Positions 28,403 through 60,641 of a stretch of 64,000 bases of DNA are shown piece by piece (the first letter of the stretch is position 1; each line of letters opens with the position of its first letter). The notes under the pieces were generated by a model. That model was not told where the DNA came from. It did not search any database and saw nothing but the letters and a program-made list of their open reading frames with translations. The stretch is taken from positions 10,860,001 to 10,924,000 of the forward strand of contig NC_053046.1 in NCBI RefSeq assembly GCF_003473485.1, written 5' to 3'. The DNA comes from Medicago truncatula. Its lineage: Eukaryota > Streptophyta > Magnoliopsida > Fabales > Fabaceae. A program made the translations under genes and the position numbers.

Positions 28403-30140
28403 ATGGGCGTTCAGCAGAAAATAAGCAAAAATGAGAAGAAGAACCAAAAGAAGCAGGAGGATTCACAGTCAATACTGTACTTAACAAATGTTGTTTTCTT
28501 TGGTCTCTTCTTCTCCGTCGCCTACTTTCTTCTCAACAGGTGGCGTGAAAAGATCCGAACCTCTACACCTCTCCACGTCCTCACAATCTCTGAGATTCTC
28601 GCTCTTGTTTCCCTCATCGCTTCCTTTGTCTACCTTATCACTTTCTTCGGCATTGCCTTCATCCTTCATTACGATGAAGAAGAAGAAGACATTGCTGCAA
28701 AAACCACTCAAGGAGTCTTGCCGAAGAAGCTACCTACGTTACCTCCACCCAAAATCTCCGACCAAAAAGTTATGTCCATGGAAGACGAGGAGGTTGTCAG
28801 TGCAGTGGTGTCAGGATCAATTCCATCTTACTCGCTTGAATCCAAGCTTGGAGATTGCCGACGTGCAGCAAATATTAGGAACCAAGCGGTGGAGAGAGTT
28901 ACCGGAAGGTCACTTGAAGGTTTACCGATGGAAGGTTTTGACTACAATTCTATATTAGGACAGTGTTGCGAGATGCCGATAGGGTTTGTTCAGATTCCGG
29001 TGGGTGTTGCCGGTCCTTTGTTGCTCGACGGGAATGAGTACACGGTGCCCATGGCAACAACCGAAGGTTGTTTGGTTGCAAGCACCAATAGAGGCTGTAA
29101 AGCTATTTATGTTTCCGGTGGGGCTTCCGCGGTTGTGCTCCGCGACGGAATGACCAGAGCCCCCGTTGTAAGATTCAACTCTGCCAAAAGAGCTTCCCAG
29201 TTGAAATTCTTTTTAGAAGATCCTCAAAATTTTGATTCCCTCTCTCACACTTTCAACAAGTAAGTAATTTTCAATTTTGAACTTTCTTCTGTTTCACTTT
29301 AAATTTTATTTGTTGAAATTACTAGTCATTTGAATAATTGTTTGATTTTCTCTGCGATATTTATTTAGGTCAAGTAGATTTGCAAGATTACAGAGTATTA
29401 AAGCTACTATGGCAGGAAAGAATTTGTACACTAGATTCACTTGTTCAACGGGTGATGCAATGGGGATGAACATGGTATCGAAAGGTGTACAAAACGTACT
29501 TGATTTTCTTCAAACCGATTTTCCCGATATGGATGTTATTGGTATATCTGGAAATTTTTGTTCGGACAAGAAAGCTGCGGCAGTGAATTGGATTGAAGGG
29601 AGAGGGAAATCAGTGGTGTGTGAGGCTGTAATTAAGGAAGAGGTGGTGAAGAAAGTGCTGAAGACTAGTGTGGAGTCTTTGGTTGAGCTTAACATGCTAA
29701 AAAACCTTACCGGTTCAGCCATGGCTGGTGCTCTTGGCGGCTTTAATGCACATGCTAGTAATATTGTTTCTGCAATTTACTTGGCTACAGGACAAGATCC
29801 TGCTCAGAATGTTGAAAGTTCTCACTGTATGACCATGATGGAAGCCGTGAATGACGGAAAGGACCTTCATATCTCAGTCACTATGCCTTCCATTGAGGTG
29901 GGCACAGTAGGAGGGGGCACACAACTTGCGTCGCAATCAGCTTGTCTAAATTTACTTGGTGTTAAAGGAGCTAGTAAAGAGACTCCAGGAGCAAATTCCA
30001 GGCAACTGGCAACTATAGTAGCTGGTTCAGTCCTTGCAGGAGAGCTCTCACTCATGTCTGCAATTGCAGCCGGGCAACTTGTTAAAAGCCACATGAAATA
30101 CAACAGATCAAATAAAGATGTCACCAAAGTTGCTTCATGA
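28403..30140 (+). CDS. HMGR: HMG-CoA reductase, copy 1 (mosaic gene)
   Basis: HMGR reduces HMG-CoA to mevalonate with two NADPH; it is the rate-setting step of the cytosolic isoprenoid pathway and is anchored in the ER. Exons 28403-29259 and 29369-30140 encode 542 residues. Two membrane spans lie at about 25-46 and 63-88, then an acidic and Pro-rich linker (about 91-118). The catalytic domain shows [12 protein letters not shown] (Glu221), DAMGMN (315-320), SDKK (351-354), TGQDPAQN (Asp429) and GTVGGGTQ (464-471). His527 lies in KSHMKYNRS, with Ser533 as the likely SnRK1 site. Plant HMGRs usually read DKKPAA; this one reads DKKAAA. It has a single 109-bp intron where the family usually has three. 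It differs from copies 2-6 at Asn182 (for Asp) and Glu377 (for Asp). The sequence is a mosaic of the copy 2-6 and copy 7 types. Confidence 0.95.
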
Positions 30141-31040
30141 GTTGTACATATGTTATATGTAGATACCACAAGTGCGAGATAAATAATCTTGTACTTATCA
30201 TCATGATCAATATTCATTGCTTGTATTTGTTAATTACTTTGTTAGTTTTAGTTGTCATTTTACGATTATTTATGCATGCAAGAAGATGAATAAGTTTTAC
30301 TATTGTAGAGTTATGTCTCTCTTTTTCTTTAACACTCTTGACAATTTATTTTCTTGTTTTATTTATTTCTCTCTGCAATAAATATCAAAAAGAGTTATTT
30401 TCAAAATAATAATTAATGTTCTATTTAAATTTGAAATGATACAATTATCTCGATGTTGAAATTGAAGTGTAGAAATTTTTCATAACCAAAGTGATTCTCA
30501 CGTGATACTACTCGTTTACCTACTTTTCTTCTTTACACTTTTTGCGTTCATTGTATCTATCATTTTAACTTGTTTCTCTGTTATTCTTGTTCAATTTTGG
30601 TATGTGTTTGATCAGGGTATATTCTTGATTTGTAATTTGGTGGATTATGTTTAAGAGCTTTCTGCATTGGTGAATTCTGTTTTGTGGGAGCTTTTTGTGC
30701 GGAAGATGTGATAGTCTCTTTTGTATGGTGAATTCTGCATGCATGAAAGTTTAATTTCTTTCATGAGATTACAAGTTATTATAGGCATTCCCATAGATTT
30801 CTAATGACTGATTTATTCTTAACCGAGTAAAAGATTATATGTGAACAGATTTGTCAACTAGTTAGAACTTAGAACATAGTTTGTCACCCTTCAACTTCAG
30901 CTGGCACCGTCAAATTTGAGGTATGGACACTTTCTTACTGTTAAGTTTCAATTTTCTATGCTCACATTACATGGTGCCGTGAAAGAGCGGTAATGTAATA
31001 TATGGCAGGGTGTAGGGCTGGTATATATGCAATATAATCC
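30141..31040. repeat. 3' flank of HMGR copy 1, inverted match to 58008-58883
   Basis: The DNA after the stop matches, in reverse complement, the 3' flank of copy 7 up to GGTATATATG at about 31030. Shared blocks include AAGTGCGAGATAAATAATC, TCACGTGA and GGTGTAGGGCTGG. The match is interrupted by small insertions and deletions. It differs from the 3' flank of copies 2-6. Poly(A) signals probably lie in the first 100-200 bases. Confidence 0.8.
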
Positions 31041-34000: not shown

Positions 34001-34083
34001 AAAGAAATTTAATGTACGTGATGAAAACTTATCATGTAGTGGATTGATTATTTTTCCTCTAATTTACAGAGACATGTATGTGA
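31041..34083. other. Spacer between HMGR copy 1 and the tandem array
   Basis: No gene is supported. Around 31200-31560 there are short phrases of broken retroelement character. A SINE lies at 31813-32020. Either side of it is DNA with repeated GTAACACTTT motifs. The rest is AT-rich. The left edge of the tandem array is at about 34084. Confidence 0.5.
31813..32020 (-). mobile_element. SINE with 12-bp target duplication
   Basis: An element of about 208 bp lies between two perfect copies of GTAACACTTTAT (31801-31812 and 32021-32032). On the minus strand it starts GGGGTTGGCATGGTGGTTG (A-box-like) and has GGTTCGATTCC (B box) about 50 bases on. It ends in an oligo(A) run. Related pieces occur at 9306-9505 and 61417-61520. 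Confidence 0.88.
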
Positions 34084-34691
34084 CAAATATGGCATGCCAT
34101 ATTATCGTTTTCCTTAATTTTGCATGATTTTTATCTTTTCTTTCTCCGTTGTTTTTTAGAGGGTTTTGGTTTGGTCCCCTCCTCTCTTGTACATACTTTC
34201 CCTTTTTTTCTAATAAATTTATATGAGTGAGTGGCCGAGGATGGGGGTTTCTTGGGGTGCCGACCTAGTCGGGATGTCTAAGCTTCTCCTTGGTGTCTTC
34301 CACACTCTTAGATCAAAACATAAAATGACAGCAAAAAATAAACGAAATAATTTGTCAACTATAAACAACAAAGCAACAACATAATTAAAAATATAATCAA
34401 AATCTCATACCAATACTATGATAATAGCACGACTTTGCTCTTTAGATGAGAACTGACACATACTAAAATACTAAAAATATTTTTTCTTTCTAAAATGAAA
34501 ATAAAAGAATCAAACTAAGTCCTCTATAATTTCTTCTGTACAAACTTTGGAAAGATATGATCCCGTCACATGGTGTTTACAAAAACAAAGTATAGTTTGC
34601 GGGCTATGTCTTCATCCTCCTACATTGAAGTTTCTTTTATTTTTCTTGATGATACATGCATGGTTATTTACCTCACAATTGTGGTATTGTC

Positions 34692-36422
34692 TCATGAAGC
34701 AACTTTGGTGACATCTTTATTCGATCTGTTGTATTTCATGTGGCTTTTAACAAGCTGCCCGGCTGCAATTGCAGACATGAGTGAGAGCTCTCCTGCAAGG
34801 ACTGAACCAGCTACTATAGTTGCCAGTTGCCTGGAATTTGCTCCTGGAGTCTCTTTACTAGCTCCTTTAACACCAAGTAAATTTAGACAAGCTGATTGCG
34901 ACGCAAGTTGTGTGCCCCCTCCTACTGTGCCCACCTCAATGGAAGGCATAGTGACTGAGATATGAAGGTCCTTTCCGTCATTCACGGCTTCCATCATGGT
35001 CATACAGTGAGAACTTTCAACATTCTGAGCAGGATCTTGTCCTGTAGCCAAGTAAATTGCAGAAACAATATTACTAGCATGTGCATTAAAGCCGCCAAGA
35101 GCACCAGCCATGGCTGAACCGGTAAGGTTTTTTAGCATGTTAAGCTCAACCAAAGACTCCACACTAGTCTTCAGCACTTTCTTCACCACATCTTCCTTAA
35201 TTACAGCCTCACACACCACTGATTTCCCTCTCCCTTCAATCCAGTTCACTGCCGCAGCTTTCTTGTCCGAACAAAAATTTCCAGATATACCAATAACATC
35301 CATATCGGGAAAATCGGTTTGAAGAAAATCAAGTACGTTTTGTACACCTTTCGATACCATGTTCATCCCCATTGCATCACCCGTTGAACAAGTGAACCTA
35401 GTGTATAAATTCTTTCCAGCCATAGTAGCTTTAATACTCTGTAGTCTTGCAAATCTACTTGACCTAAATAAATATCGCAGAGAAAATCAATCACTTATCC
35501 AAATGAGTAATTTCAACAAAATTTATAGTGAAACAGAAGAAAGTTCAAAATTGAAAATTACTTACTTGTTGAAAGTGTGAGAGAGGGAATCAAAATTTTG
35601 AGGATCTTCTAAAAAGAATTTCAACTGAGAAGCTCTTTTGGCGGAGTTGAATCTTACGACTGGGGCTCGGGTCATTCCGTCACGGAGGACAACGGCGGAA
35701 GCACCACCGGAAACATAAATAGCTTTACAGCCTCTATTGGTGCTTGCAACCAAACAACCTTCGGTTGTTGCCATGGGCACCGTGTACTCATTCCCGTCGA
35801 GCAACAAAGGACCGGCAACACCCACCGGAATCTGAACAAACCCTATGGGCATCTCGCAACACTGTCCTAATATAGAATCGTAATCAAAACCTTCCATCGG
35901 TAAACCTTCAAGTGACCTTCCGGTAACTCTCTCCACGGCTTGGTTCCTAATATTTGCTGCACGTCGGCAATCTCCAAGCTTGGATTCAAGCGAGTAAGAT
36001 GGAATTGATCCTGACACCACTGCACTGACAACCTCCTCGTCTTCCATGGACATAACTTTTTGGTCGGAGATTTTGGGTGGAGGTAACGTAGGTAGCTTCT
36101 TCGGCAAGACTCCTTGAGTGGTTTTTGCAGCAATGTCTTCTTCTTCTTCATCGTAATGAAGGATGAAGGCAATGCCGAAGAAAGTGATAAGGTAGACAAA
36201 GGAAGCGATGAGGGAAACAAGAGCGAGAATCTCAGAGATTGTGAGGACGTGGAGAGGTGTAGAGGTTCGGATCTTTTCACGCCACCTGTTGAGAAGAAAG
36301 TAGGCGACGGAGAAGAAGAGACCAAAGAAAACAACATTTGTTAAGTACAGTATTGACTGTGAATCCTCCTGCTTCTTTTGGTTCTTCTTCTCATTTTTGC
36401 TTATTTTCTGCTGAACGCCCAT
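34692..36422 (-). CDS. HMGR: HMG-CoA reductase, copy 2 (array unit 1)
   Basis: Exons 36422-35566 and 35463-34692 with a 102-bp intron give 542 residues. All active-site motifs listed for copy 1 are present at the same residues. It carries Asp182 and Asp377, the array type. The 3' flank (before 34692) is unlike that of copies 1 and 7 within a few tens of bases of the stop, so transcripts of the array can be told apart by their 3' UTR. The left 220 bases of this unit carry several changes not seen in the other four units, as expected for an array edge. Confidence 0.95.
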
Positions 36423-36528
36423 TTCTCTGATTTGAAAAAGAAAAGAAAGAAAGGAGTTCAGTTCAGTTTAGGGGATGATTGATGATGGGTAATACTAATT
36501 GCTTGAAAATGATTTTCAATGTTATTAT

Positions 36529-36536
36529 TATTTATA
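36529..36536 (-). promoter_or_regulatory. TATA box of HMGR copy 2
   Basis: TATAAATA on the minus strand, 107 bases before the ATG. About 20-50 bases further upstream is the block CCTCACTCACTCTCTGAGTA, shared in close form with copy 7. A TTGAC W-box core is on the plus strand near 36697 (regulatory role inferred). Confidence 0.65.
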
Positions 36537-37958
36537 GACAAATTAAGAGTACTCAGAGAGTGAGTGAGGAATTAGGTATATGCAATAATGTTATTTTTTT
36601 TGTTAACAGAAGTTTCGTAGCTAGATCGTAATGAACTCGTGCACAACCAGAAGGAATATTGTAATGTGTAGATAATAAACTAGCTAGAAGCCTTGTGTTG
36701 ACTAAACTAAATTATTTCCCTGCAGAAACTAATTAAACTATACTATATATTTTTGTTGTTCACTGAAACTAATTAGTTTAATATATCACTTGCGCTGCAA
36801 AAAAAAAAACGTGTTTATGATATAAAATTAAGACAATTAAAAAAGAGATAGAGAATATGAAAGTCTATTAATGTATCATTCTCTTTCTTTTAACGTGTGT
36901 TTTTACACCAATTAATATATGAGTTCAATTTATAGTATCCAATTATAGGTCTTAACTTTGTAGGATGCTCTCAAATAGGTCTATGAGTTTATGAATATTT
37001 TAAATAGGTCTCTGACTTAATCGAAATTTATTCTTATTGAAAAGTATAGGGATCAAACTGATAGTAAGTTGTTTAAAATATAAGGACTTAGTTGATAGTT
37101 TAATAGAGCCGGTGAGCTTTCTATAATATTCATAATCTCATAGGCTTATTTAATAGCGACGTAATACAAACTAAAAGACTAATTTGATTGTGTAAGCAAA
37201 CATGTGTTGATATTGTGTTTTTCTTTCCAATTTGTACAACTCATTATATCCATTTTAAAAAGTCAACAATAATTCAATCGAATTATAACATAATTAGACT
37301 TGTGCTGAAGTTGTTTGGAATAAGGTTAAGTTCACAGCAAAAGTAGGTTAATAATTCAATCACGAGTATGATCAAATGAAATGAACTGATTCTGAATGCA
37401 CGAACAATGATCAAAATGGTGCGGATACAAAGGTAGGACTTGAGGTTTAAAACTGCTTTACCCAGTACGAATCAAAACAACTGCTGATAAAATGCCAAAA
37501 CACAAAAACGAGGATACATAAAAACATCGGAATCTAAGTTCCTTCTCTAGGTATCTACATTGTCGGACTTCAAGTGAGCCGAACGCTGAATCCCAACCAT
37601 GGTTCTCTCTAGGCTCTAAAGCATATCTTCTATGTACTCACCCATGTAAGTGAGTTATAAACAATGTTTAGTTCACATTTTTGGTAGGAAAGATATAAAT
37701 TGATGTACTACTTGATTCATATTTAATAATAACTTATTTAAAAAATTTTTTTTTTTTTTTGTTACAACTTATTTAAAATATATGATTTATTAAATTTAAG
37801 TATTTGTATTATGAGGGAATCTTCTTTTTTTTTTCCGAAAAGTTTTCTTCGATTGCTTGGGTCCTTCTTGAGGCGTTATTAGGCACCAAATGTGTACATC
37901 TTCCCCAGTTGAGATTCGAACTTGGCGAAGTTAATTAAAGTCTACACATAATTCTTTT
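36537..37958. other. Upstream region of array unit 1
   Basis: The first 350 bases are related to the promoters of copies 1 and 7. Beyond that is AT-rich DNA present identically in the other units. It has no coding sequence. Homopolymer A/T runs near 37740-37760 differ in length between units. Confidence 0.5.
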
Positions 37959-38393
37959 CAGGGGCGGATCTGCTTAAGGCAGGGTGTGGCAATAGCCACA
38001 CCAGCCAGCCCAATTTGTTTTAAAAAATTATATTTCTTCATAAGAAACACACTCAGCCCAACCCAATACTACCAACAGCCTACCTTTTCCTTACCAATAC
38101 CAAAACACACACCAAACATATTTATTTCTTTCTTCCAAATTTCCTCTAAGATTTCTCTCACCCTTCTTTCCTCTCCTTATGACCTCACCCTCACCTCTCG
38201 TCTCAACCAAGTTTTAACATTTTCGTCTCTTGACGCACCGCCTCACTCTTTCTTTGTTATTAACATTTAGATTGAAATTGAAATTGAATGGTTTCTAATC
38301 TCATTTATTCGAAATTGAATGGTTTATGATGTCTCTTAGTTATTGGGCAAAAAAATTAGCCTCACTGATTTTTTATGTCCAGATCCGCCCCTG
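37959..38393. mobile_element. hAT-type MITE, array unit 1
   Basis: The ends CAGGGGCGGATCTG and CAGATCCGCCCCTG are inverted repeats of hAT style. The right flank is ATTCTTGT (38394-38401). The left flank here is ATTCTTTT (37951-37958); in the other three units it is ATTCTTGT, so the 8-bp duplication has changed in this unit only. The element is 435 bp. The 94-residue open frame inside it (37986-38270) looks like chance. Confidence 0.88.
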
Positions 38394-38895
38394 ATTCTTG
38401 TGGGTGCGAATGAATCAATTTATTAGTTATGAAAAATAATTTGGAAATATGATGAACTTTTACTTTCCTTTCAAAATAAAATGATGAACTTTTTCTACCT
38501 TTTTTTTTTGTTGAGAATATTGTTGTACTTTTACTTGTAGAATAATTTTAACCAGTTTATTTATTTCACTTGATATCACATTTAATTTCAATGCCCCATT
38601 AAAATATATGTTTGCCATTTTAATTTTACGAAACATAACTTAGCACGTACTCCCTCAAGTCTTTTTTATTCATCGTTTTTGTCGGTATTTTTTTTTTCTC
38701 TTACTTATTTATCTTTTTCAAAGTTAATGCAATATTAGTTATTATTTTATCAATAATACCCTTTAGTATTTATTGAAATATGGAAATAAGTAAAATGAGA
38801 TAATAGATACTCAAGAGTGATATTGAAAAAATATAAATAATTCTATCAGAAATAATAAAATATATTGTCTTTTTTCTTCTTCTTTTCTTCTTAAT

Positions 38896-39184
38896 TTGGA
38901 ACAAAAATTTATTGATCTTCTTGTTTGTGTAAATAAACCTAAAATGAAGTTGAATTGCTTGGATTCATTATCGCTTTGGATTGAGGGAGATTCTTCTAGC
39001 GCGCTTCTTGCGTTAAAAAAATCAGAATTGGTTCCTTGTATTTTGCGTAATAGATGGCATAATTATTTCACTTTGGATCTTCACGTTCTTTCTTCTCATA
39101 TTTTTGGTGGGATGCTATGCCTGATTTTACTAGGGAAGATATCTTTAGGGACAAATATGGCATGCCATATTATCATTTTCCTTA
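38896..39184 (+). pseudogene. LINE RNase H-like 3' fragment, unit 1/2 boundary
   Basis: The translation LWIEGDSSSALLALKKS followed by LRNRWHNYF resembles the RNase H-like end of plant L1-type retroelements. The frame changes near 39100, where the usual His-Ile-Phe-Arg-Glu-Gly-Asn segment is lost. It then continues as WWDAMPDFTREDIFRDKYG to a stop at 39184. The fragment runs without a break across the unit boundary at 39151. Confidence 0.65.
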
Positions 39185-39760
39185 ATTTTGCATGATTTTC
39201 ATCTTTTCTTTCTCCGTTGTTTTTTAGAGGGTTTTGGTTTGGTCCCCTCCTCTCTTGTACATATTTTCCCTTTTTTTCTAATAAATTTATATGAGTGAGT
39301 GGCAGAGGATGGGGGTTTCTTGGGGGTACCGACCTAGTCGGGATGTGTAAGCTTCTCTTTGGTGTCTTCCACACTCTTAGATCAAAACATAAAATGACAA
39401 CAAAAAATAAACGAAATAATTTGTCAACTATAAACAACAAAGCAACAACATAATTAAAAATATAATCAAAATCTCATACCAATACTATGATAATAGCACG
39501 ACTTTGCTCTTTAGATGAGAACTGACACATACTAAAATACTAAAAATATTTTTTCTTTCTAAAATGAAAATAAAAGAATCAAACTAAGTCCTCTATAATT
39601 TCTTCTGTACAAACTTTGGAAAGATATGATCCCGTCACATGGTGTTTACAAAAACAAAGTATAGTTTGCGGGCTATGTCTTCATCCTCCTACATTGAAGT
39701 TTCTTTTATTTTTCTTGATGATACATGCATGGTTATTTACCTCACAATTGTGGTATTGTC

Positions 39761-41491
39761 TCATGAAGCAACTTTGGTGACATCTTTATTCGATCTGTTG
39801 TATTTCATGTGGCTTTTAATAAGCTGCCCGGCTGCAATTGCAGACATGAGTGAGAGCTCTCCTGCAAGGACTGAACCAGCTACTATAGTTGCCAGTTGCC
39901 TGGAATTTGCTCCTGGAGTCTCTTTACTAGCTCCTTTAACACCAAGTAAATTTAGACAAGCTGATTGCGACGCAAGTTGTGTGCCCCCTCCTACTGTGCC
40001 CACCTCAATGGAAGGCATAGTGACTGAGATATGAAGGTCCTTTCCGTCATTCACGGCTTCCATCATGGTCATACAGTGAGAACTTTCAACATTCTGAGCA
40101 GGATCTTGTCCTGTAGCCAAGTAAATTGCAGAAACAATATTACTAGCATGTGCATTAAAGCCGCCAAGAGCACCAGCCATGGCTGAACCGGTAAGGTTTT
40201 TTAGCATGTTAAGCTCAACCAAAGACTCCACACTAGTCTTCAGCACTTTCTTCACCACATCTTCCTTAATTACAGCCTCACACACCACTGATTTCCCTCT
40301 CCCTTCAATCCAGTTCACTGCCGCAGCTTTCTTGTCCGAACAAAAATTTCCAGATATACCAATAACATCCATATCGGGAAAATCGGTTTGAAGAAAATCA
40401 AGTACGTTTTGTACACCTTTCGATACCATGTTCATCCCCATTGCATCACCCGTTGAACAAGTGAACCTAGTGTATAAATTCTTTCCAGCCATAGTAGCTT
40501 TAATACTCTGTAGTCTTGCAAATCTACTTGACCTAAATAAATATCGCAGAGAAAATCAATCACTTATCCAAATGAGTAATTTCAACAAAATTTATAGTGA
40601 AACAGAAGAAAGTTCAAAATTGAAAATTACTTACTTGTTGAAAGTGTGAGAGAGGGAATCAAAATTTTGAGGATCTTCTAAAAAGAATTTCAACTGAGAA
40701 GCTCTTTTGGCGGAGTTGAATCTTACGACTGGGGCTCGGGTCATTCCGTCACGGAGGACAACGGCGGAAGCACCACCGGAAACATAAATAGCTTTACAGC
40801 CTCTATTGGTGCTTGCAACCAAACAACCTTCGGTTGTTGCCATGGGCACCGTGTACTCATTCCCGTCGAGCAACAAAGGACCGGCAACACCCACCGGAAT
40901 CTGAACAAACCCTATGGGCATCTCGCAACACTGTCCTAATATAGAATCGTAATCAAAACCTTCCATCGGTAAACCTTCAAGTGACCTTCCGGTAACTCTC
41001 TCCACGGCTTGGTTCCTAATATTTGCTGCACGTCGGCAATCTCCAAGCTTGGATTCAAGCGAGTAAGATGGAATTGATCCTGACACCACTGCACTGACAA
41101 CCTCCTCGTCTTCCATGGACATAACTTTTTGGTCGGAGATTTTGGGTGGAGGTAACGTAGGTAGCTTCTTCGGCAAGACTCCTTGAGTGGTTTTTGCAGC
41201 AATGTCTTCTTCTTCTTCATCGTAATGAAGGATGAAGGCAATGCCGAAGAAAGTGATAAGGTAGACAAAGGAAGCGATGAGGGAAACAAGAGCGAGAATC
41301 TCAGAGATTGTGAGGACGTGGAGAGGTGTAGAGGTTCGGATCTTTTCACGCCACCTGTTGAGAAGAAAGTAGGCGACGGAGAAGAAGAGACCAAAGAAAA
41401 CAACATTTGTTAAGTACAGTATTGACTGTGAATCCTCCTGCTTCTTTTGGTTCTTCTTCTCATTTTTGCTTATTTTCTGCTGAACGCCCAT
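39761..41491 (-). CDS. HMGR: HMG-CoA reductase, copy 3 (array unit 2)
   Basis: Exons 41491-40635 and 40532-39761 give 542 residues. The protein is identical to copy 2 except for Ile in place of Val at residue 524, three residues before catalytic His527. This is the only amino-acid change seen among the five array copies. Intron, 5' leader and 3' flank match the array type. Confidence 0.95.
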
Positions 41492-46665: not shown

Positions 46666-46673
46666 TATTTATA
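46666..46673 (-). promoter_or_regulatory. TATA box of HMGR copy 4
   Basis: TATAAATA on the minus strand, 107 bases before the ATG, in an array-type promoter. Confidence 0.65.
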
Positions 46674-49031: not shown

Positions 49032-49320
49032 TTGGAACAAAAATTTATTGATCTTCTTGTTTGTGTAAATAAACCTAAAATGAAGTTGAATTGCTTGGAT
49101 TCATTATCGCTTTGGATTGAGGGAGATTCTTCTAGCGCGCTTCTTGCGTTAAAAAAATCAGAATTGGTTCCTTGTATTTTGCGTAATAGATGGCATAATT
49201 ATTTCACTTTGGATCTTCACGTTCTTTCTTCTCATATTTTTGGTGGGATGCTATGCCTGATTTTACTAGGGAAGATATCTTTAGGGACAAATATGGCATG
49301 CCATATTATCATTTTCCTTA
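49032..49320 (+). pseudogene. LINE RNase H-like 3' fragment, unit 3/4 boundary
   Basis: Same fragment and same defect as in the other units; it spans the unit boundary at 49288. Confidence 0.65.
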
Positions 49321-49896
49321 ATTTTGCATGATTTTCATCTTTTCTTTCTCCGTTGTTTTTTAGAGGGTTTTGGTTTGGTCCCCTCCTCTCTTGTACATAT
49401 TTTCCCTTTTTTTCTAATAAATTTATATGAGTGAGTGGCAGAGGATGGGGGTTTCTTGGGGGTACCGACCTAGTCGGGATGTGTAAGCTTCTCTTTGGTG
49501 TCTTCCACACTCTTAGATCAAAACATAAAATGACAACAAAAAATAAACGAAATAATTTGTCAACTATAAACAACAAAGCAACAACATAATTAAAAATATA
49601 ATCAAAATCTCATACCAATACTATGATAATAGCACGACTTTGCTCTTTAGATGAGAACTGACACATACTAAAATACTAAAAATATTTTTTCTTTCTAAAA
49701 TGAAAATAAAAGAATCAAACTAAGTCCTCTATAATTTCTTCTGTACAAACTTTGGAAAGATATGATCCCGTCACATGGTGTTTACAAAAACAAAGTATAG
49801 TTTGCGGGCTATGTCTTCATCCTCCTACATTGAAGTTTCTTTTATTTTTCTTGATGATACATGCATGGTTATTTACCTCACAATTGTGGTATTGTC

Positions 49897-51627
49897 TCAT
49901 GAAGCAACTTTGGTGACATCTTTATTCGATCTGTTGTATTTCATGTGGCTTTTAACAAGCTGCCCGGCTGCAATTGCAGACATGAGTGAGAGCTCTCCTG
50001 CAAGGACTGAACCAGCTACTATAGTTGCCAGTTGCCTGGAATTTGCTCCTGGAGTCTCTTTACTAGCTCCTTTAACACCAAGTAAATTTAGACAAGCTGA
50101 TTGCGACGCAAGTTGTGTGCCCCCTCCTACTGTGCCCACCTCAATGGAAGGCATAGTGACTGAGATATGAAGGTCCTTTCCGTCATTCACGGCTTCCATC
50201 ATGGTCATACAGTGAGAACTTTCAACATTCTGAGCAGGATCTTGTCCTGTAGCCAAGTAAATTGCAGAAACAATATTACTAGCATGTGCATTAAAGCCGC
50301 CAAGAGCACCAGCCATGGCTGAACCGGTAAGGTTTTTTAGCATGTTAAGCTCAACCAAAGACTCCACACTAGTCTTCAGCACTTTCTTCACCACATCTTC
50401 CTTAATTACAGCCTCACACACCACTGATTTCCCTCTCCCTTCAATCCAGTTCACTGCCGCAGCTTTCTTGTCCGAACAAAAATTTCCAGATATACCAATA
50501 ACATCCATATCGGGAAAATCGGTTTGAAGAAAATCAAGTACGTTTTGTACACCTTTCGATACCATGTTCATCCCCATTGCATCACCCGTTGAACAAGTGA
50601 ACCTAGTGTATAAATTCTTTCCAGCCATAGTAGCTTTAATACTCTGTAGTCTTGCAAATCTACTTGACCTAAATAAATATCGCAGAGAAAATCAATCACT
50701 TATCCAAATGAGTAATTTCAACAAAATTTATAGTGAAACAGAAGAAAGTTCAAAATTGAAAATTACTTACTTGTTGAAAGTGTGAGAGAGGGAATCAAAA
50801 TTTTGAGGATCTTCTAAAAAGAATTTCAACTGAGAAGCTCTTTTGGCGGAGTTGAATCTTACGACTGGGGCTCGGGTCATTCCGTCACGGAGGACAACGG
50901 CGGAAGCACCACCGGAAACATAAATAGCTTTACAGCCTCTATTGGTGCTTGCAACCAAACAACCTTCGGTTGTTGCCATGGGCACCGTGTACTCATTCCC
51001 GTCGAGCAACAAAGGACCGGCAACACCCACCGGAATCTGAACAAACCCTATGGGCATCTCGCAACACTGTCCTAATATAGAATCGTAATCAAAACCTTCC
51101 ATCGGTAAACCTTCAAGTGACCTTCCGGTAACTCTCTCCACGGCTTGGTTCCTAATATTTGCTGCACGTCGGCAATCTCCAAGCTTGGATTCAAGCGAGT
51201 AAGATGGAATTGATCCTGACACCACTGCACTGACAACCTCCTCGTCTTCCATGGACATAACTTTTTGGTCGGAGATTTTGGGTGGAGGTAACGTAGGTAG
51301 CTTCTTCGGCAAGACTCCTTGAGTGGTTTTTGCAGCAATGTCTTCTTCTTCTTCATCGTAATGAAGGATGAAGGCAATGCCGAAGAAAGTGATAAGGTAG
51401 ACAAAGGAAGCGATGAGGGAAACAAGAGCGAGAATCTCAGAGATTGTGAGGACGTGGAGAGGTGTAGAGGTTCGGATCTTTTCACGCCACCTGTTGAGAA
51501 GAAAGTAGGCGACGGAGAAGAAGAGACCAAAGAAAACAACATTTGTTAAGTACAGTATTGACTGTGAATCCTCCTGCTTCTTTTGGTTCTTCTTCTCATT
51601 TTTGCTTATTTTCTGCTGAACGCCCAT
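49897..51627 (-). CDS. HMGR: HMG-CoA reductase, copy 5 (array unit 4)
   Basis: Exons 51627-50771 and 50668-49897 give 542 residues with the copy 2 protein sequence. The gene itself shows no difference by eye, but its far upstream spacer (about 52620-53060) holds several base changes and longer A/T runs than the other units. Confidence 0.95.
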
Positions 51628-51733
51628 TTCTCTGATTTGAAAAAGAAAAGAAAGAAAGGAGTTCAGTTCAGTTTAGGGGATGATTGATGATGGGTAATAC
51701 TAATTGCTTGAAAATGATTTTCAATGTTATTAT

Positions 51734-51741
51734 TATTTATA
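51734..51741 (-). promoter_or_regulatory. TATA box of HMGR copy 5
   Basis: TATAAATA on the minus strand, 107 bases before the ATG, in an array-type promoter. Confidence 0.65.
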
Positions 51742-53166
51742 GACAAATTAAGAGTACTCAGAGAGTGAGTGAGGAATTAGGTATATGCAATAATGTTATT
51801 TTTTTTGTTAACAGAAGTTTCGTAGCTAGATCGTAATGAACTCGTGCACAACCAGAAGGAATATTGTAATGTGTAGATAATAAACTAGCTAGAAGCCTTG
51901 TGTTGACTAAACTAAATTATTTCCCTGCAGAAACTAATTAAACTATACTATATATTTTTGTTGTTCACTGAAACTAATTAGTTTAATATATCACTTGCGC
52001 TGCAAAAAAAAAAACGTGTTTATGATATAAAATTAAGACAATTAAAAAAGAGATAGAGAATATGAAAGTCTATTAATGTATCATTCTCTTTCTTTTAACG
52101 TGTGTTTTTACACCAATTAATATATGAGTTCAATTTATAGTATCCAATTATAGGTCTTAACTTTGTAGGATGCTCTCAAATAGGTCTATGAGTTTATGAA
52201 TATTTTAAATAGGTCTCTGACTTAATCGAAATTTATTCTTATTGAAAAGTATAGGGATCAAACTGATAGTAAGTTGTTTAAAATATAAGGACTTAGTTGA
52301 TAGTTTAATAGAGCCGGTGAGCTTTCTATAATATTCATAATCTCATAGGCTTATTTAATAGCGACGTAATACAAACTAAAAGACTAATTTGATTGTGTAA
52401 GCAAACATGTGTTGATATTGTGTTTTTCTTTCCAATTTGTACAACTCATTATATCCATTTTAAAAAGTCAACAATAATTCAATCGAATTATAACATAATT
52501 AGACTTGTGCTGAAGTTGTTTGGAATAAGGTTAAGTTCACAGCAAAAGTAGGTTAATAATTCAATCACGAGTATGATCAAATGAAATGAACTGATTCTGA
52601 ATGCACGAACAATGATCAAAATGGTGCAGATACAAAGGTAGGACTTGAGGTTTAAAACTGCTTTACCCAGTACGAATCAAAACAACTGCTGATAAAATGC
52701 CAAAACACAAAAACGAGGATACATAAAAACATCGGAATCTAAGTTCCTTCTCTAGGTATCTACATTGTCGGACTTCAAGTGAGCCGAACGCTGAATCCCA
52801 ACCATGGTTCTCTATAGGCTCAAAAGCATATCTTCTATGTACTCACCCATGTAAGTGAGTTATAAACAATGTTTAGTTCACATTTTTGGTAGGAAAGATA
52901 TCAATTGATGTACTACTTGATTCATATTTAATAATAACTTATTTAAAAAAAAAAAATTTTTTTTTTTGTTACAACTTATTTAAAATATATGATTTATTAA
53001 ATTTAAGTATTTGTATTATGAGGGAATCTTTTTTTTTTTTTTCCGAAAAGTTTTCTTCAATTGCTTGGGTCCTTCTTGAGGCGTTATTAGGCACCAAATG
53101 TGTACATCTTCCCCAGTTGAGATTCGAACTTGGCGAAGTTAATTAAAGTCTACACATAATTCTTGT

Positions 53167-53601
53167 CAGGGGCGGATCTGCTTAAGGCAGGGTGTGGCAA
53201 TAGCCACACCAGCCAGCCCAATTTGTTTTAAAAAATTATATTTTTTCATAAGAAACACACTCAGCCCAACCCAATACTACCAACAGCCTACCTTTTCCTT
53301 ACCAATACCAAAACACACACCAAACATATTTATTTCTTTCTTCCAAATTTCCTCTAAGATTTCTCTCACCCTTCTTTACTCTCCTTATGACCTCACCCTC
53401 ACCTCTCGTCTCAACCAAGTTTTAACATTTTCGTCTCTTGACGCACCGCCTCACTCTTTCTTTGTTATCAACATTTAGATTGAAATTGAAATTGAATGGT
53501 TTCTAATCTCATTTATTCGAAATTGAATGGTTTATGATGTCTCTTAGTTATTGGGCAAAAAAATTAGCCTCACTGATTTTTTATGTCCAGATCCGCCCCT
53601 G
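53167..53601. mobile_element. hAT-type MITE, array unit 4
   Basis: Same element with both ATTCTTGT flanks. It has a few private base changes (for example near 53245, 53377 and 53469). Confidence 0.88.
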
Positions 53602-54104
53602 ATTCTTGTGGGTGCGAATGAATCAATTTATTAGTTATGAAAAATAATTTGGAAATATGATGAACTTTTACTTTCCTTTCAAAATAAAATGATGAACTTT
53701 TTCTACCTTTTTTTTTTTGTTGAGAATATTGTTGTACTTTTACTTGTAGAATAATTTTAACCAGTTTATTTATTTCACTTGATATCACATTTATTTTCAA
53801 TGCCCCATTAAAATATATGTTTGCCATTTTAATTTTACGAAACATAACTTAGCACGTACTCCCTCAAGTCTTTTTTATTCATCGTTTTTGTCGGTATTTT
53901 TTTTTTCTCTTACTTATTTATCTTTTTCAAAGTTAATGCAATATTAGTTATTATTTTATCAATAATACCCTTTAGTATTTATTGAAATATGGAAATAAGT
54001 AAAATGAGATAATAGATACTCAAGAGTGATATTGAAAAAATATAAATAATTCTATCAGAAATAATAAAATATATTGTCTTTTTTCTTCTTCTTTTCTTCT
54101 TAAT

Positions 54105-54393
54105 TTGGAACAAAAATTTATTGATCTTCTTGTTTGTGTAAATAAACCTAAAATGAAGTTGAATTGCTTGGATTCATTATCGCTTTGGATTGAGGGAGAT
54201 TCTTCTAGCGCGCTTCTTGCGTTAAAAAAATCAGAATTGGTTCCTTGTATTTTGCGTAATAGATGGCATAATTATTTCACTTTGGATCTTCACGTTCTTT
54301 CTTCTCATATTTTTGGTGGGATGCTATGCCTGATTTTATTAGGGAAGATATCTTTAGGGACAAATATGGCATGCCATATTATCATTTTCCTTA
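54105..54393 (+). pseudogene. LINE RNase H-like 3' fragment, unit 4/5 boundary
   Basis: Same fragment, spanning the boundary at 54361. It has one private change near 54340 (TTTTATTAGG for TTTTACTAGG). Confidence 0.65.
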
Positions 54394-54969
54394 ATTTTGC
54401 ATGATTTTCATCTTTTCTTTCTCCGTTGTTTTTTAGAGGGTTTTGGTTTGGTCCCCTCCTCTCTTGTACATATTTTCCCTTTTTTTCTAATAAATTTATA
54501 TGAGTGAGTGGCAGAGGATGGGGGTTTCTTGGGGGTACCGACCTAGTCGGGATGTGTAAGCTTCTCTTTGGTGTCTTCCACACTCTTAGATCAAAACATA
54601 AAATGACAACAAAAAATAAACGAAATAATTTGTCAACTATAAACAACAAAGCAACAACATAATTAAAAATATAATCAAAATCTCATACCAATACTATGAT
54701 AATAGCACGACTTTGCTCTTTAGATGAGAACTGACACATACTAAAATACTAAAAATATTTTTTCTTTCTAAAATGAAAATAAAAGAATCAAACTAAGTCC
54801 TCTATAATTTCTTCTGTACAAACTTTGGAAAGATATGATCCCGTCACATGGTGTTTACAAAAACAAAGTATAGTTTGCGGGCTATGTCTTCATCCTCCTA
54901 CATTGAAGTTTCTTTTATTTTTCTTGATGATACATGCATGGTTATTTACCTCACAATTGTGGTATTGTC

Positions 54970-56700
54970 TCATGAAGCAACTTTGGTGACATCTTTATTC
55001 GATCTGTTGTATTTCATGTGGCTTTTAACAAGCTGCCCGGCTGCAATTGCAGACATGAGTGAGAGCTCTCCTGCAAGGACTGAACCAGCTACTATAGTTG
55101 CCAGTTGCCTGGAATTTGCTCCTGGAGTCTCTTTACTAGCTCCTTTAACACCAAGTAAATTTAGACAAGCTGATTGCGACGCAAGTTGTGTGCCCCCTCC
55201 TACTGTGCCCACCTCAATGGAAGGCATAGTGACTGAGATATGAAGGTCCTTTCCGTCATTCACGGCTTCCATCATGGTCATACAGTGAGAACTTTCAACA
55301 TTCTGAGCAGGATCTTGTCCTGTAGCCAAGTAAATTGCAGAAACAATATTACTAGCATGTGCATTAAAGCCGCCAAGAGCACCAGCCATGGCTGAACCGG
55401 TAAGGTTTTTTAGCATGTTAAGCTCAACCAAAGACTCCACACTAGTCTTCAGCACTTTCTTCACCACATCTTCCTTAATTACAGCCTCACACACCACTGA
55501 TTTCCCTCTCCCTTCAATCCAGTTCACTGCCGCAGCTTTCTTGTCCGAACAAAAATTTCCAGATATACCAATAACATCCATATCGGGAAAATCGGTTTGA
55601 AGAAAATCAAGTACGTTTTGTACACCTTTCGATACCATGTTCATCCCCATTGCATCACCCGTTGAACAAGTGAACCTAGTGTATAAATTCTTTCCAGCCA
55701 TAGTAGCTTTAATACTCTGTAGTCTTGCAAATCTACTTGACCTAAATAAATATCGCAGAGAAAATCAATCACTTATCCAAATGAGTAATTTCAACAAAAT
55801 TTATAGTGAAACAGAAGAAAGTTCAAAATTGAAAATTACTTACTTGTTGAAAGTGTGAGAGAGGGAATCAAAATTTTGAGGATCTTCTAAAAAGAATTTC
55901 AACTGAGAAGCTCTTTTGGCGGAGTTGAATCTTACGACTGGGGCTCGGGTCATTCCGTCACGGAGGACAACGGCGGAAGCACCACCGGAAACATAAATAG
56001 CTTTACAGCCTCTATTGGTGCTTGCAACCAAACAACCTTCGGTTGTTGCCATGGGCACCGTGTACTCATTCCCGTCGAGCAACAAAGGACCGGCAACACC
56101 CACCGGAATCTGAACAAACCCTATGGGCATCTCGCAACACTGTCCTAATATAGAATCGTAATCAAAACCTTCCATCGGTAAACCTTCAAGTGACCTTCCG
56201 GTAACTCTCTCCACGGCTTGGTTCCTAATATTTGCTGCACGTCGGCAATCTCCAAGCTTGGATTCAAGCGAGTAAGATGGAATTGATCCTGACACCACTG
56301 CACTGACAACCTCCTCGTCTTCCATGGACATAACTTTTTGGTCGGAGATTTTGGGTGGAGGTAACGTAGGTAGCTTCTTCGGCAAGACTCCTTGAGTGGT
56401 TTTTGCAGCAATGTCTTCTTCTTCTTCATCGTAATGAAGGATGAAGGCAATGCCGAAGAAAGTGATAAGGTAGACAAAGGAAGCGATGAGGGAAACAAGA
56501 GCGAGAATCTCAGAGATTGTGAGGACGTGGAGAGGTGTAGAGGTTCGGATCTTTTCACGCCACCTGTTGAGAAGAAAGTAGGCGACGGAGAAGAAGAGAC
56601 CAAAGAAAACAACATTTGTTAAGTACAGTATTGACTGTGAATCCTCCTGCTTCTTTTGGTTCTTCTTCTCATTTTTGCTTATTTTCTGCTGAACGCCCAT
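54970..56700 (-). CDS. HMGR: HMG-CoA reductase, copy 6 (array unit 5, partial unit)
   Basis: Exons 56700-55844 and 55741-54970 give 542 residues with the copy 2 protein sequence. The unit is truncated beyond its promoter: the DNA stays array-like to about 58008 and then turns into the 3' flank of copy 7. It therefore lacks the hAT MITE and LINE fragment upstream. The far end of this unit (57300-58008) carries more changes than any internal unit. Confidence 0.95.
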
Positions 56701-56806
56701 TTCTCTGATTTGAAAAAGAAAAGAAAGAAAGGAGTTCAGTTCAGTTTAGGGGATGATTGATGATGGGTAATACTAATTGCTTGAAAATGATTTTCAATGT
56801 TATTAT

Positions 56807-56814
56807 TATTTATA
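56807..56814 (-). promoter_or_regulatory. TATA box of HMGR copy 6
   Basis: TATAAATA on the minus strand, 107 bases before the ATG, in an array-type promoter. Confidence 0.65.
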
Positions 56815-58007
56815 GACAAATTAAGAGTACTCAGAGAGTGAGTGAGGAATTAGGTATATGCAATAATGTTATTTTTTTTGTTAACAGAAGTTTCGTAGCT
56901 AGATCGTAATGAACTCGTGCACAACCAGAAGGAATATTGTAATGTGTAGATAATAAACTAGCTAGAAGCCTTGTGTTGACTAAACTAAATTATTTCCCTG
57001 CAGAAACTAATTAAACTATACTATATATTTTTGTTGTTCACTGAAACTAATTAGTTTAATATATCACTTGCGCTGCAAAAAAAAAAACGTGTTTATGATA
57101 TAAAATTAAGACAATTAAAAAGAGATAGAGAATATGAAAGTCTATTAATGTATCATTCTCTTTCTTTTAACGTGTGTTTTTACACCAATTAATATATGAG
57201 TTCAATTTATAGTATCCAATTATAGGTCTTAACTTTGTAGGATGCTCTCAAATAGGTCTATGAGTTTATGAATATTTTAAATAGGTCTCTGACTTAATCG
57301 AAATTTATTCTTATTGACAAGTATAGGGATCAAACTGATAGTAAGTTGTTTAAAATATAAGGACTTAGTTGATAGTTTAATAGAGCCGGTGAGCTTTCTA
57401 TAATATTCATAATCTCATAGGCTTATTTAATAGTGACGTAATACAAACTAAAAGACTAATTTGATTGTGTAAGCAAACATGTGTTGATATTGTGTTTTTC
57501 TTTCCAATTTGTACAACTCATTATATCCATTTTAAAAAGTCAACAATAATTCAATCGAATTATAACATAATTAGACTTGTGCTGAAGTTGTTTGGAATAA
57601 GGTTAAGTTCACAGCAAAAGTAGGTTAATAATTCAATCACGAGTATGATCAAATGAAATGAACTGATTCTGAATGCACGAACAATGATCAAAATGGTGCG
57701 GATACAAAGGTAGGACTTGAGGTTTAAAACTGCTTTACCCAGTACGAATCAAAACAACTGCTGATAAAATGCCAAAACAAAAAAACGAGGATACATAAAA
57801 ACATCGGAATCTAAGTTCCTTCTCTAGCTATCTACGCTGTCGGACTTCAAGTGAGCCGGACGCTGAATCCCAACCATGGTTCTCTCTAGGCTCTAAAGCA
57901 TATCTTCTATGTACTACTCACCCATATAAGTGAGTTATACACAATGTTTACTTCACATTTTTGGAAGGAAAGATAAAAATTGTTGTATTACTACTTTCAT
58001 ATTTAAT

Positions 58008-58883
58008 AACATATATACCAGCCCTACACCCCTGCCATATATTACATTACTGCTTTTTCATGGCACCATGTAATTCGAGCATACAAAATTGAAACTTAAG
58101 AGTAAGAAAGTGTCCATACCTCAAATTTTACAGTGCCACTTGAAGTTGAAACCTGACGAACTATGTTCACCAGTCTGTTCACATATACATTTTCTACATG
58201 ATTATGCATAAATCAGTCACTAGAAATCTATGGGAATGCCTAATAACTTTTAATCTCATGACAGAAATTAAACTTTCAAGTATGCAGAATTCACCATACA
58301 AAAGAGACTATCACGTCTTCCACACAAAAAGCTCACCGCAAAACTGAATTCACCAGTGCAGAAAGCTCTTTAACATAATCCACCAATTTACAAAGCATGA
58401 CAGTAACCTAATCAAAGACACTACCAAAATGAAACAAGAATAACAGAGATACAAGTTACAATGATAGATACAATGAACGCAAAAAGTGTAACTAAGAAAA
58501 GTAGGTAAACGACTAGTATCACGTGAGAATCACTTTGGTTATGAAAAATTTCTACACTTCAATTTCTACATCGAGATAATTGTATCATTTCAAATTTAAA
58601 TAGAACGTTAATTATTATTTTGAAAATAACTCTTTTTGATATTTATTGCAGAGAGAAATAAATAAAACAAGATAATAAATTGTCAAGAGTGTTAAAGAAA
58701 AAGAGAGACATAACTCTACAATAGTAAAACTTATTCATCTTCTTGCATGCATAAATAATCGTAAAATGACAAATAAAACTAACAAAGTAATTAACAAATA
58801 CAAGCAATGAATATTGATCATGATGGTAAGTACAAGATTATTTATCTCGCACTTGTGGTATCTACATATAACCTATGTACAAC
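58008..58883. repeat. 3' flank of HMGR copy 7, inverted match to 30141-31040
   Basis: From the phrase ATATATACCAGCCCTACACC on, the sequence is the reverse complement of the DNA downstream of copy 1. The match continues to the stop codon of copy 7, with small gaps. It marks the junction between the tandem array and the copy 7 block. Confidence 0.8.
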
Positions 58884-60641
58884 TCATGAAGCAACTTTGG
58901 TGACATCTTTATTTGATCTGTTGTATTTCATGTGGCTTTTAACAAGTTGCCCGGCTGCAATTGCAGACATGAGTGAGAGCTCTCCTGCAAGGACTGAACC
59001 AGCTACTATAGTTGCCAGTTGCCTGGAATTTGCTCCTGGAGTCTCTTTACTAGCTCCTTTAACACCAAGTAAATTTAGACAAGCTGATTGCGACGCAAGT
59101 TGTGTGCCCCCTCCTACTGTACCCACCTCAATGGAAGGCATAGTGACTGAGATATGAAGGTCCTTTCCGTCATTCACGGCTTCCATCATGGTCATACAGT
59201 GAGAACTTTCAACATTCTGAGCAGGATCTTGTCCTGTAGCCAAGTAAATTGCAGAAACAATATTACTAGCATGTGCGTTAAAGCCGCCAAGTGCACCAGC
59301 CATGGCTGAACCGGTAAGGTTTTTTAGCATGTTAAGCTCAACCAAAGACTCCACACTAGTCTTCAGCACTTTCTTCACCACCTCTTCCTTAATTACAGCC
59401 TCACACACCACTGATTTCCCTCTCCCTTCAATCCAATTCACTGCCGCAGCTTTCTTGTCCGAACAAAAATTTCCAGATATACCAATAACATCCATATCGG
59501 GAAAATCGGTTTGAAGAAAATCAAGTACGTTTTGTACACCTTTCGATACCATGTTCATCCCCATTGCATCACCCGTTGAACAAGTGAATCTAGTGTATAA
59601 ATTCTTTCCTGCCATAGTAGCTTTAATACTCTGTAATCTTGCAAATCTACTTGACCTAAATAAATATTGCAGAGAAAATCAATCAGTTATCCAAATAAGT
59701 AGTAATTTCAACAAATAAAATTTAAAGTGAAACCGAAGAAAGTTCAAAATTGAAAATTACTTGTTGAAAGTGTGAGAGAGGGAATCAAAATTTTGAGGAT
59801 CTTCTAAAAAGAATTTCAACTGAGAAGCTCTTTTGGCGGAGTTGAATCTTACAACGGGGGCTCTGGTCATTCCGTCGCGGAGCACAACAGCGGAAGCACC
59901 TCCGGAAACATAAATAGCTTTACAGCCTCTGTTGGTGCTTGCAACCAAACAACCTTCGGTTGTTGCCATGGGCACCGTGTATTCATTCCCGTCGAGCAAC
60001 AAAGGACCGGCAACACCCACCGGAATTTGAACAAACCCTATCGGCATCTCGCAACACTGTCCTAATATAGAATCGTAGTCAAAACCTTTCATCGGTAAAC
60101 CTTCAAGTGACCTTCCGGTAACCCTCTCCACTGCTTGGTTCCTAATCTTTGCTGCACGACGGCAATCTCCGAGCTTCGACTCAAGGGAGTAAGAAGGAAT
60201 TGATCCCGATACCACTGCACCGACAACCTCTTCGTCTTCCATGGACATAACTTTTTGGTCAGATATTTTCGGTGGTGGTAACATAGGTAGCTTCTTCGGC
60301 ACAACTCCTCCGGTGGGTTTTGCAGAATTGTCGACTACTTCGTCTTCATCATCATCGTAATGAATGATGAAGGCAGTGCCGAAGAAAGCAATAAGGTAGA
60401 CGAAGGAAGCGATGAGGGAAACTACAGCAACAATCTCAGAGACTGTGAGGATGTGGAGAGGTGTAGAGGTTCGGATCTTTTCACGCCACCTGTTAAGAAG
60501 AAAGTACGCGGCGGAGAAGAAGAGACCAAAGAAAACAGCGTTTGTTAAATACAGTGAAGAAGAAGGTTGTTGTGACTGTGAATCCTGCTGCTGCCTTTGG
60601 TTCTTCTTCTCATTTTTGCTTATTTTCTGCTGAACGTCCAT
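58884..60641 (-). CDS. HMGR: HMG-CoA reductase, copy 7 (distinct N-terminus)
   Basis: Exons 60641-59761 and 59655-58884 with a 105-bp intron give 550 residues. The N-terminus starts [10 protein letters not shown] and has an 8-residue net insertion rich in Gln/Ser before the first membrane span. The linker after the second span also differs ([10 protein letters not shown]). The catalytic domain is close to the others and has the same DKKAAA. It carries Lys at the residue equal to Glu177 of copy 1, and Glu rather than Asp at the position of residue 377. The intron donor is GTAATT, where the other six have GTAAGT; four bases present in the others are missing here. This looks like the least homogenised member of the cluster. 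Confidence 0.95.

What the first reader, a model, noticed from the sequence alone, without database searches (positions are those of the whole stretch)
28403..60641. Seven intact HMG-CoA reductase genes in 32 kb, five in near-identical 5.07-kb units
HMGR is a rate-setting enzyme usually present as a small dispersed family. Here all seven copies keep open frames and all catalytic motifs, and five encode the same protein apart from one Val/Ile change. This is a recent amplification of a flux-controlling gene and suggests selection on dosage. It also needs ruling out as an assembly effect.
Basis: partly seen in the sequence, partly recalled or inferred. Interest (0 to 1): 0.85.

Follow-up and report, generated by a model that had tools for sequence, protein, structure and literature searches.

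The report
Tandem array of HMG-CoA reductase genes
A plant chromosome, very probably that of the model legume Medicago truncatula, carries seven intact copies of the gene for a flux-controlling enzyme of sterol and saponin synthesis close together, five of them practically identical because of recent unequal recombination; it is a real and unusually large case of a familiar kind of gene amplification.

Summary
Confirmed: seven intact HMGR genes at 28403-60641, five (U1-U5) in a head-to-tail array at 34082-58009: four full units of about 5.07 kb and a partial 3.65-kb fifth. Four more lie elsewhere, 11 in all. The genome fits Medicago truncatula and the locus fits HMGR1 on chromosome 5 (both inferred). 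Variants show how the array grew: U1 alone differs at its left edge, U5 alone at its right edge, and inner units combine the other types, the footprint of unequal crossing over between two older tandem copies (edges 3-6% diverged). Gene conversion also reached the inverted copy A. All seven genes lack two of the three usual plant HMGR introns. All keep a proximal CACGAG N-box, a jasmonate/TSAR-type element, not found within 1.5 kb of the two most distant HMGR genes. An assembly effect is disfavoured (no Ns, unit-specific variants, longest exact repeat about 3.1 kb, no HMGR on unplaced contigs), but no reads were available. Selection on dosage is plausible and untested. The proposed 3'-UTR expression test cannot separate U1, U4 and U5. 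A large example of a known kind of event; a four-gene HMGR cluster is known in cotton.

The parts
28403..30140 (+). HMGR copy A (exons 28403-29259, 29369-30140; 542 aa), inverted relative to the array
   Evidence: Gene model; flanks pair with G (28236-31029 vs 60789-58010, 92.5%); 5' part of the CDS is of U type
28407..28873 (+). Gene-conversion tract: 50 consecutive polymorphic sites where A agrees with U and not G
   Evidence: 0 of 5000 shuffles reach a run of 50
34082..39149 (-). Array unit 1 (HMGR U1: exons 36422-35566, 35463-34692)
39150..44217 (-). Array unit 2 (HMGR U2: exons 41491-40635, 40532-39761; the Val->Ile copy)
44218..49285 (-). Array unit 3 (HMGR U3: exons 46559-45703, 45600-44829)
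49286..54358 (-). Array unit 4 (HMGR U4: exons 51627-50771, 50668-49897)
54359..58009 (-). Array unit 5, partial, 3651 bp (HMGR U5: exons 56700-55844, 55741-54970)
58884..60641 (-). HMGR copy G (exons 60641-59761, 59655-58884; 550 aa), most diverged of the cluster; nearest the kinase gene, so a candidate for the gene named HMGR1 (inferred)
   Evidence: kinase exon just beyond the window
34082..34331 (.). Left edge of the array: 8 substitutions and 1 indel specific to U1; mostly the tail of a dispersed repeat
57700..58009 (.). Right edge of the array: U5 differs at 15-19 of 307 columns (equivalent of 37423-37729 in unit 1)
   Evidence: start coordinate approximate
38971..39394 (+). Dispersed repeat running across the unit 1/2 junction; perhaps LINE-derived (by eye; Pfam scan of its ORF found no family). 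Near-identical sequence at the other three junctions
   Evidence: copies elsewhere on C6, C4, C2, C7, C8; Pfam
37959..38393 (.). 435-bp hAT-like non-autonomous element, 14-bp terminal inverted repeats, 8-bp target duplication ATTCTTGT (also 43028-43462, 48095-48529, 53167-53601); superfamily assignment recalled
36636..36641 (-). Proximal N-box CACGAG of U1 (equivalents at 41705, 46773, 51841, 56914; in G at 60885; in A at 28130 on +)

Best explanation
This is a genuine, recent tandem amplification of a plant HMG-CoA reductase gene at what is most likely the HMGR1 locus of Medicago truncatula chromosome 5. Shown by sequence: seven intact genes; layered duplications; variant edges that fit array growth by unequal crossing over between two older tandem copies, giving chimeric inner units; gene conversion between copies, including the inverted copy A; a proximal promoter with TATA-like and N-box sequences in all seven copies. 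Inferred: the copies are transcribed under the jasmonate-responsive TSAR bHLH factors and together raise inducible mevalonate flux for triterpene saponins and sterols (and possibly the HMGR1-dependent early symbiotic signal). The copy number is expected to change readily by further unequal exchange.
For: Seven intact models with all seven motif patterns tested; best matches among solved structures are chains named HMG-CoA reductase 1, and U1 aligns with 7uli over residues 24-538. U2-U5 share the left edge, U1-U4 share the right edge. Only one variable site among all five units between 34537 and 36838; largest variant-free gap among U1-U4 2406 bp, permutation P 0.0005. A/U conversion tract: 50 of 87 polymorphic sites in a row, 0 of 5000 shuffles. 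ML tree of full CDS: L011 with the cluster, (A,U,G), and (A,U), each support 100. N-box within 1.5 kb in 7 of 7 cluster genes plus L011 and L009, in 0 of 2 of L010 and L012; it lies in an aligned conserved block in A, U, G and L011. N-box CACGAG reported as necessary and sufficient for TSAR action on the CYP93E2 minimal promoter; an HMGR1 promoter construct is listed for the same kind of assay, its result not seen (PMC9562455, passages). Species and locus: 430 Mb, 42 contigs, at least 159 late-nodulin matches; MtHMGR1 is Medtr5g026500 (PMC4885319, one passage), the next number, Medtr5g026510, is an LRR receptor-like kinase on chromosome 5 at 10,889,054 (PMC8832151, one passage), and here a kinase exon lies beside G at C5:10,924 kb.
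Against: No reads, expression or population data: copy number, transcription of each copy and any benefit are untested. The N-box in A, U, G and L011 is one inherited site, not seven independent ones, and the two N-boxes of L009 are not at the aligned place. In exon 2 alone the grouping of A with U has support of only 66. One variant (37157) is shared by U3 and U5 against the rest, so the edge model is not the whole story. Several single-base indels lie in homopolymers and may be sequence errors; polishing could also make repeated gene bodies look more uniform than they are. The organism is inferred, not named by any tool, and the published kinase coordinate differs from the one here by about 35 kb (another assembly, presumably; not explained).
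Confidence: 0.75

Rival explanations
1. Assembly effect: one or two real units were written out several times, or the number is wrong.
For: Units are 99.3-99.8% alike by substitutions; some differences are indels in homopolymers. Nothing here measures depth.
Against: No N in the window. Each terminal unit has its own edge (8 substitutions in U1; 15-19 in U5) and U2, U3 and U4 have private substitutions. Longest exact repeat found in the array, at offsets near whole units, is 3091 bp, shorter than usual long reads (recalled). No HMGR match on contigs C9-C42.
Confidence: 0.12
2. Neutral amplification: unequal crossing over and conversion alone made and maintain the array, with no benefit from dosage.
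For: Synonymous sites and intron are as invariant as the protein in U1-U5, so recency and homogenisation are enough. The older U, A and G copies show ordinary purifying constraint (Ka/Ks 0.03-0.22).
Against: 7 of 7 copies stayed intact, with promoter block and N-box, although A, G and the U lineage are older (Ks 0.05-0.14). This is weak evidence because conversion also repairs.
Confidence: 0.4
3. The copies are kept for different tasks (symbiosis, saponin, sterol) rather than for dosage.
For: A, U and G differ in distal promoter and flanks, and G differs from U by about 30 nonsynonymous changes, nearly all in exon 1 (Ka 0.045 in exon 1, 0.002 in exon 2).
Against: U1-U5 have no coding difference but one conservative change and no substitution in the promoter over 36423-37040, so they cannot be specialised by sequence there.
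Confidence: 0.25

Closest known systems
MtHMGR1 (Medtr5g026500) of Medicago truncatula
   Same: Chromosome 5, kinase gene beside it, same enzyme; an HMGR1 promoter construct is listed for TSAR assays (PMC9562455, passages)
   Different: The passages seen name HMGR1 as one gene; in this assembly the locus holds seven genes. Which one is HMGR1 is inferred (G) and not tested by sequence
HMGR expansions in plants (Gossypium raimondii nine genes with a four-gene cluster; soybean eight), PMC3983158
   Same: Species-specific HMGR expansion, partly tandem, under purifying selection
   Different: Here 11 genes and a seven-gene cluster with Ks = 0 among five; that survey of 20 species tops out at nine and its text does not contain the word Medicago (passages)
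Tandem arrays under concerted evolution by unequal crossing over and gene conversion (general class, recalled)
   Same: Diverged terminal edges, homogenised middle, chimeric inner units, conversion between inverted copies
   Different: Nothing in principle; the gene is a rate-controlling metabolic enzyme

Membership tests
Plant class I HMG-CoA reductase (PF00368) | HMG-CoA_red domain over cut-off | tested here: met
   PF00368 over cut-off at all seven window genes in the genome scan and for the U1 exon-2 ORF
Plant class I HMG-CoA reductase (PF00368) | HMG-CoA and NADPH motifs and catalytic Glu, Lys, Asp, His regions | tested here: met
   All seven patterns in 11 of 11 genes (patterns recalled); U1 aligned to the HMGR 1 chain 7uli (that 7uli is a plant protein is recalled)
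Plant class I HMG-CoA reductase (PF00368) | Three introns (43 of 56 genes, PMC3983158 passage) | tested here: not met
   The seven window genes keep only intron 1; L011 has introns 1 and 3; L009, L010 and L012 have all three. Typical but not defining: that survey names three other one-intron members
Plant class I HMG-CoA reductase (PF00368) | Enzyme activity and ER membrane anchoring | not testable with these tools
   Needs expression and assay
Tandem array grown by unequal crossing over | Head-to-tail units with terminal-edge divergence and chimeric inner units | tested here: met
Tandem array grown by unequal crossing over | Homogenisation or conversion among copies | tested here: met
Tandem array grown by unequal crossing over | Copy number confirmed by reads or varying among individuals | not testable with these tools
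   No reads or other accessions on hand
TSAR/jasmonate-regulated HMGR genes | N-box CACGAG in the proximal promoter | tested here: met
   7 of 7 cluster genes
TSAR/jasmonate-regulated HMGR genes | Activation by TSAR1/2 of each copy | not testable with these tools
   Needs reporter assays
M. truncatula HMGR1 locus | Same chromosome region and LRR-kinase neighbour | tested here: inconclusive
   Kinase exon beside G and an LRR-like piece by pattern only; matches the published gene order, but the coordinate differs by about 35 kb and the species is inferred
M. truncatula HMGR1 locus | Sequence identity with the published HMGR1 gene | not tested
   The HMGR1 paper is not held and no plant sequence library is on hand

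The most novel reading that the evidence does not exclude
The HMGR1 locus of Medicago is an actively rearranging dosage array: unequal exchange makes copy-number alleles that differ between accessions and tune jasmonate-inducible saponin output and early nodulation signalling, while conversion keeps every copy, even the inverted one, functional.
Probability: 0.3. Interest if true: 0.65.

Novelty: new member of a known kind. Interest (0 to 1): 0.42.

Why it matters
If the locus is HMGR1, work that treats it as a single gene (probes, qPCR primers, RNAi, single-gene knockouts) is really addressing up to seven closely similar genes, so single mutants may show little and expression values are sums. 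It also offers a clean natural case for asking whether copy number of a flux-controlling mevalonate enzyme is selected.

Tried and rejected
Repeat-to-repeat recombination as the founding event: the unit junction lies inside a dispersed repeat, but the 3' flank of L011 is collinear with the 3' flank of U2 on both sides of that repeat. The repeat therefore seems to have been inserted after the split from L011 and before the U copies split: its two versions (U1 edge, inner units) are 97% alike over 350 bp, against 81-90% to five other genome copies in pieces of 100 bp or more (some short pieces score higher). Repeat-mediated founding is not needed, though not excluded. I read the repeat as LINE-derived by eye; the Pfam scan of its ORF found no family.

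Biosynthetic gene cluster: of 56 ORFs of 110 aa or more in the window I scanned ten: a nodulin-like/NFD4 transporter in two pieces, a group 1/4 glycosyltransferase, two kinase pieces, one HMGR and four without a family. No triterpene scaffold or P450 domain among those ten, so no cluster claim is made.

U2 (Val/Ile SNP, 34751 in U1 coordinates) and U3 (SNP at 34536) can be told apart.

The labels per unit pair in the exact-repeat part are not restricted to that pair; only the overall maximum (3091 bp) is used, and only offsets within 12 bases of whole units were tried.

Literature: all 10 searches used (12 of 17 papers listed, 24 of 25). None of the listed titles or abstract beginnings is about a tandem HMGR array in Medicago; this covers the held open-licence library only. 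Passages of PMC7940691, PMC12480905, PMC12504280, PMC8838541, PMC6405277 and PMC9995466 were also seen and gave no copy number for Medicago HMGR.
Full report
OBSERVATION. Self-comparison of the window shows a head-to-tail repeat at 34082-58009 and two further gene-sized copies, one inverted (28399-30141) and one at the right (58883-60647). Gene models give seven HMG-CoA reductase genes: A (+) and U1-U5 and G (-). Each has one intron with GT-AG ends, 542 aa (550 in G), a TGA stop, and all seven motif patterns tested. U1, U3, U4 and U5 encode the same protein; U2 has one Val->Ile. Unit starts are 34082, 39150, 44218, 49286 and 54359. Units 1-4 are complete (5068-5073 bp), unit 5 is 3651 bp and runs directly into the 3' flank of G. 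The best matches among solved structures are chains named HMG-CoA reductase 1 (7uli, 8ecg; that these are plant proteins is recalled).

GENOME CONTEXT. The window is C5:10860001-10924000 of a 429,922,655-base genome in 42 contigs. The HMGR domain search gave 23 exon matches, the exon-2 protein search 19. They resolve into the seven window genes, four dispersed genes (L009 C5:10.07 Mb, L010 C5:39.15 Mb, L011 C5:40.86 Mb, L012 C8:33.17 Mb; fetched) and one relic at C4:61.53 Mb. None lies on C9-C42. The late-nodulin family PF07127 has at least 159 matches (150 of 1198 candidates scored), which points to a Medicago-type legume. That such families are typical of those legumes, and that the A17 assembly has about this size and sequence number, is recalled. 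MtHMGR1 is Medtr5g026500 (PMC4885319, one passage), and Medtr5g026510 is an LRR receptor-like kinase on chromosome 5 at 10,889,054 (PMC8832151, one passage). Here a kinase exon (C5:10,924,081-10,924,524) and an LRR-like piece found by pattern only (about 10,929,062) lie next to G. The coordinates differ by about 35 kb, presumably because another assembly was used. I infer that this is the M. truncatula HMGR1 locus and that G, nearest the kinase, may be Medtr5g026500.

HOW THE ARRAY GREW. The variant table is asymmetric. In the first 250 bp, U1 differs from all other units at 8 sites while U2-U5 are identical. In the last 307 bp that U5 shares, U5 differs from the others at 15-19 sites while U1-U3 are identical and U4 has 4 private changes. 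Inner units thus combine a U5-type left with a U1-type right, as expected if unequal crossing over between two older tandem copies, about 3-6% diverged, produced them. A second exchange or conversion must have made the body of U5 like the rest, and one variant shared by U3 and U5 (37157) also asks for conversion or recurrence. Between 34537 and 36838 there is one variable site among all five units. For U1-U4, the largest variant-free gap is 2406 bp (P 0.0005); outside density predicts about 7 changes at the roughly 1211 presumably neutral sites in it, and none is seen. Ks is 0 for all ten pairs of U1-U5.

GENE CONVERSION BEYOND THE ARRAY. A and G share flanks (28236-31029 against 60789-58010, 92.5%), yet A matches U at 50 consecutive polymorphic sites over 28407-28873 (87 sites among A, U and G; 0 of 5000 shuffles). 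The remaining sites are a patchwork, and exon 2 is much closer among A, U and G (Ks 0.02-0.05) than exon 1 of G is to A and U (Ks 0.20-0.23). Conversion therefore involved the inverted copy as well.

OLDER LAYERS. The ML tree of the full CDS (unrooted, read with L010 and L012 as outgroup) places L009, then L011, then (G,(A,U)), with support 100 at those nodes. Exon 1 alone agrees (98-100); in exon 2 alone the A-U grouping has 66 and the L009 node 78, as conversion would give. Ks to U1 is 0.36 (L011), 0.51 (L009), and above 1 for L012 and L010. Introns follow the tree: three in L009, L010 and L012; two in L011 (intron 2 lost); one in the seven window genes (introns 2 and 3 lost, exactly). A survey of 56 plant HMGR genes found three introns in 43 and inferred three as ancestral (PMC3983158, passages). 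Serial exact losses fit recombination with reverse-transcribed mRNA, which is inference. The 3' flanks of L011 and of U2 are collinear around a dispersed repeat that now spans the unit junctions. Units 1-4 also carry a 435-bp hAT-like element with an 8-bp target duplication.

REGULATION. The proximal promoter block around the N-box CACGAG aligns in A, U, G and L011, with a TATA-like sequence. The N-box lies at -273 (A), -219 (U1-U5), -249 (G) and -200 (L011); L009 has two, not at the aligned place; L010 and L012 have none within 1.5 kb. About 0.1-0.3 are expected per promoter. 12 of the 15 N-boxes in the window lie within 1.5 kb upstream of HMGR genes, but ten of these are copies of two. In M. 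truncatula, N-boxes are reported as necessary and sufficient for TSAR action on the CYP93E2 minimal promoter, and HMGR1 and HMGR4 promoter constructs are listed for such assays (PMC9562455, passages; the HMGR1 result was not in the passages). I take the array as inducible HMGR supply for triterpene saponins and sterols, with a possible role in early symbiotic signalling, where HMGR1 is placed downstream of SYMRK (PMC11348429, passage). Transcription of each copy is not shown.

ASSEMBLY. The window has no N. Every unit has private variants. The longest exact repeat found in the array is 3091 bp, which ordinary long reads exceed (recalled). Against this: no reads were seen, several indels sit in homopolymers, and polishing may hide real differences. 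I put an assembly cause for the array at about 0.12.

VERDICT. The amplification reading is right. The claim of selection on dosage is open. Compared with a survey of 20 species (maximum nine genes, one four-gene cluster in cotton; PMC3983158, passages), 11 genes with seven in 32 kb is large, but it is a known kind of event. The five units cannot all be told apart by 3' UTR: U1, U4 and U5 are identical over 34332-36838.

Noticed in passing
window 37959-38393, 43028-43462, 48095-48529, 53167-53601: 435-bp hAT-like element with 14-bp terminal inverted repeats and 8-bp target duplication ATTCTTGT, perfect in U2-U4 and changed on the left in U1
   Followed up: yes
window genes versus L009-L012: Stepwise exact intron loss in one HMGR lineage: three introns, then two (L011), then one (all seven window genes)
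   Followed up: partly
G000 C4:61528786-61528902 (L032:2290-2449): Short relic of an HMGR gene, two adjoining pieces of 76% and 53% protein identity
   Followed up: partly
window 14-2103, 2914-4404, 6468-8649: Nodulin-like/NFD4 transporter, a glycosyltransferase and kinase pieces left of the cluster
   Followed up: no
L010 and L012 promoters: The two most distant HMGR genes have no CACGAG N-box within 1.5 kb, unlike the other nine
   Followed up: partly
G000 C4:6227805-6234719: Four late-nodulin (NCR-type) matches at exactly 2244-bp spacing, another recent-looking tandem array in this genome
   Followed up: no
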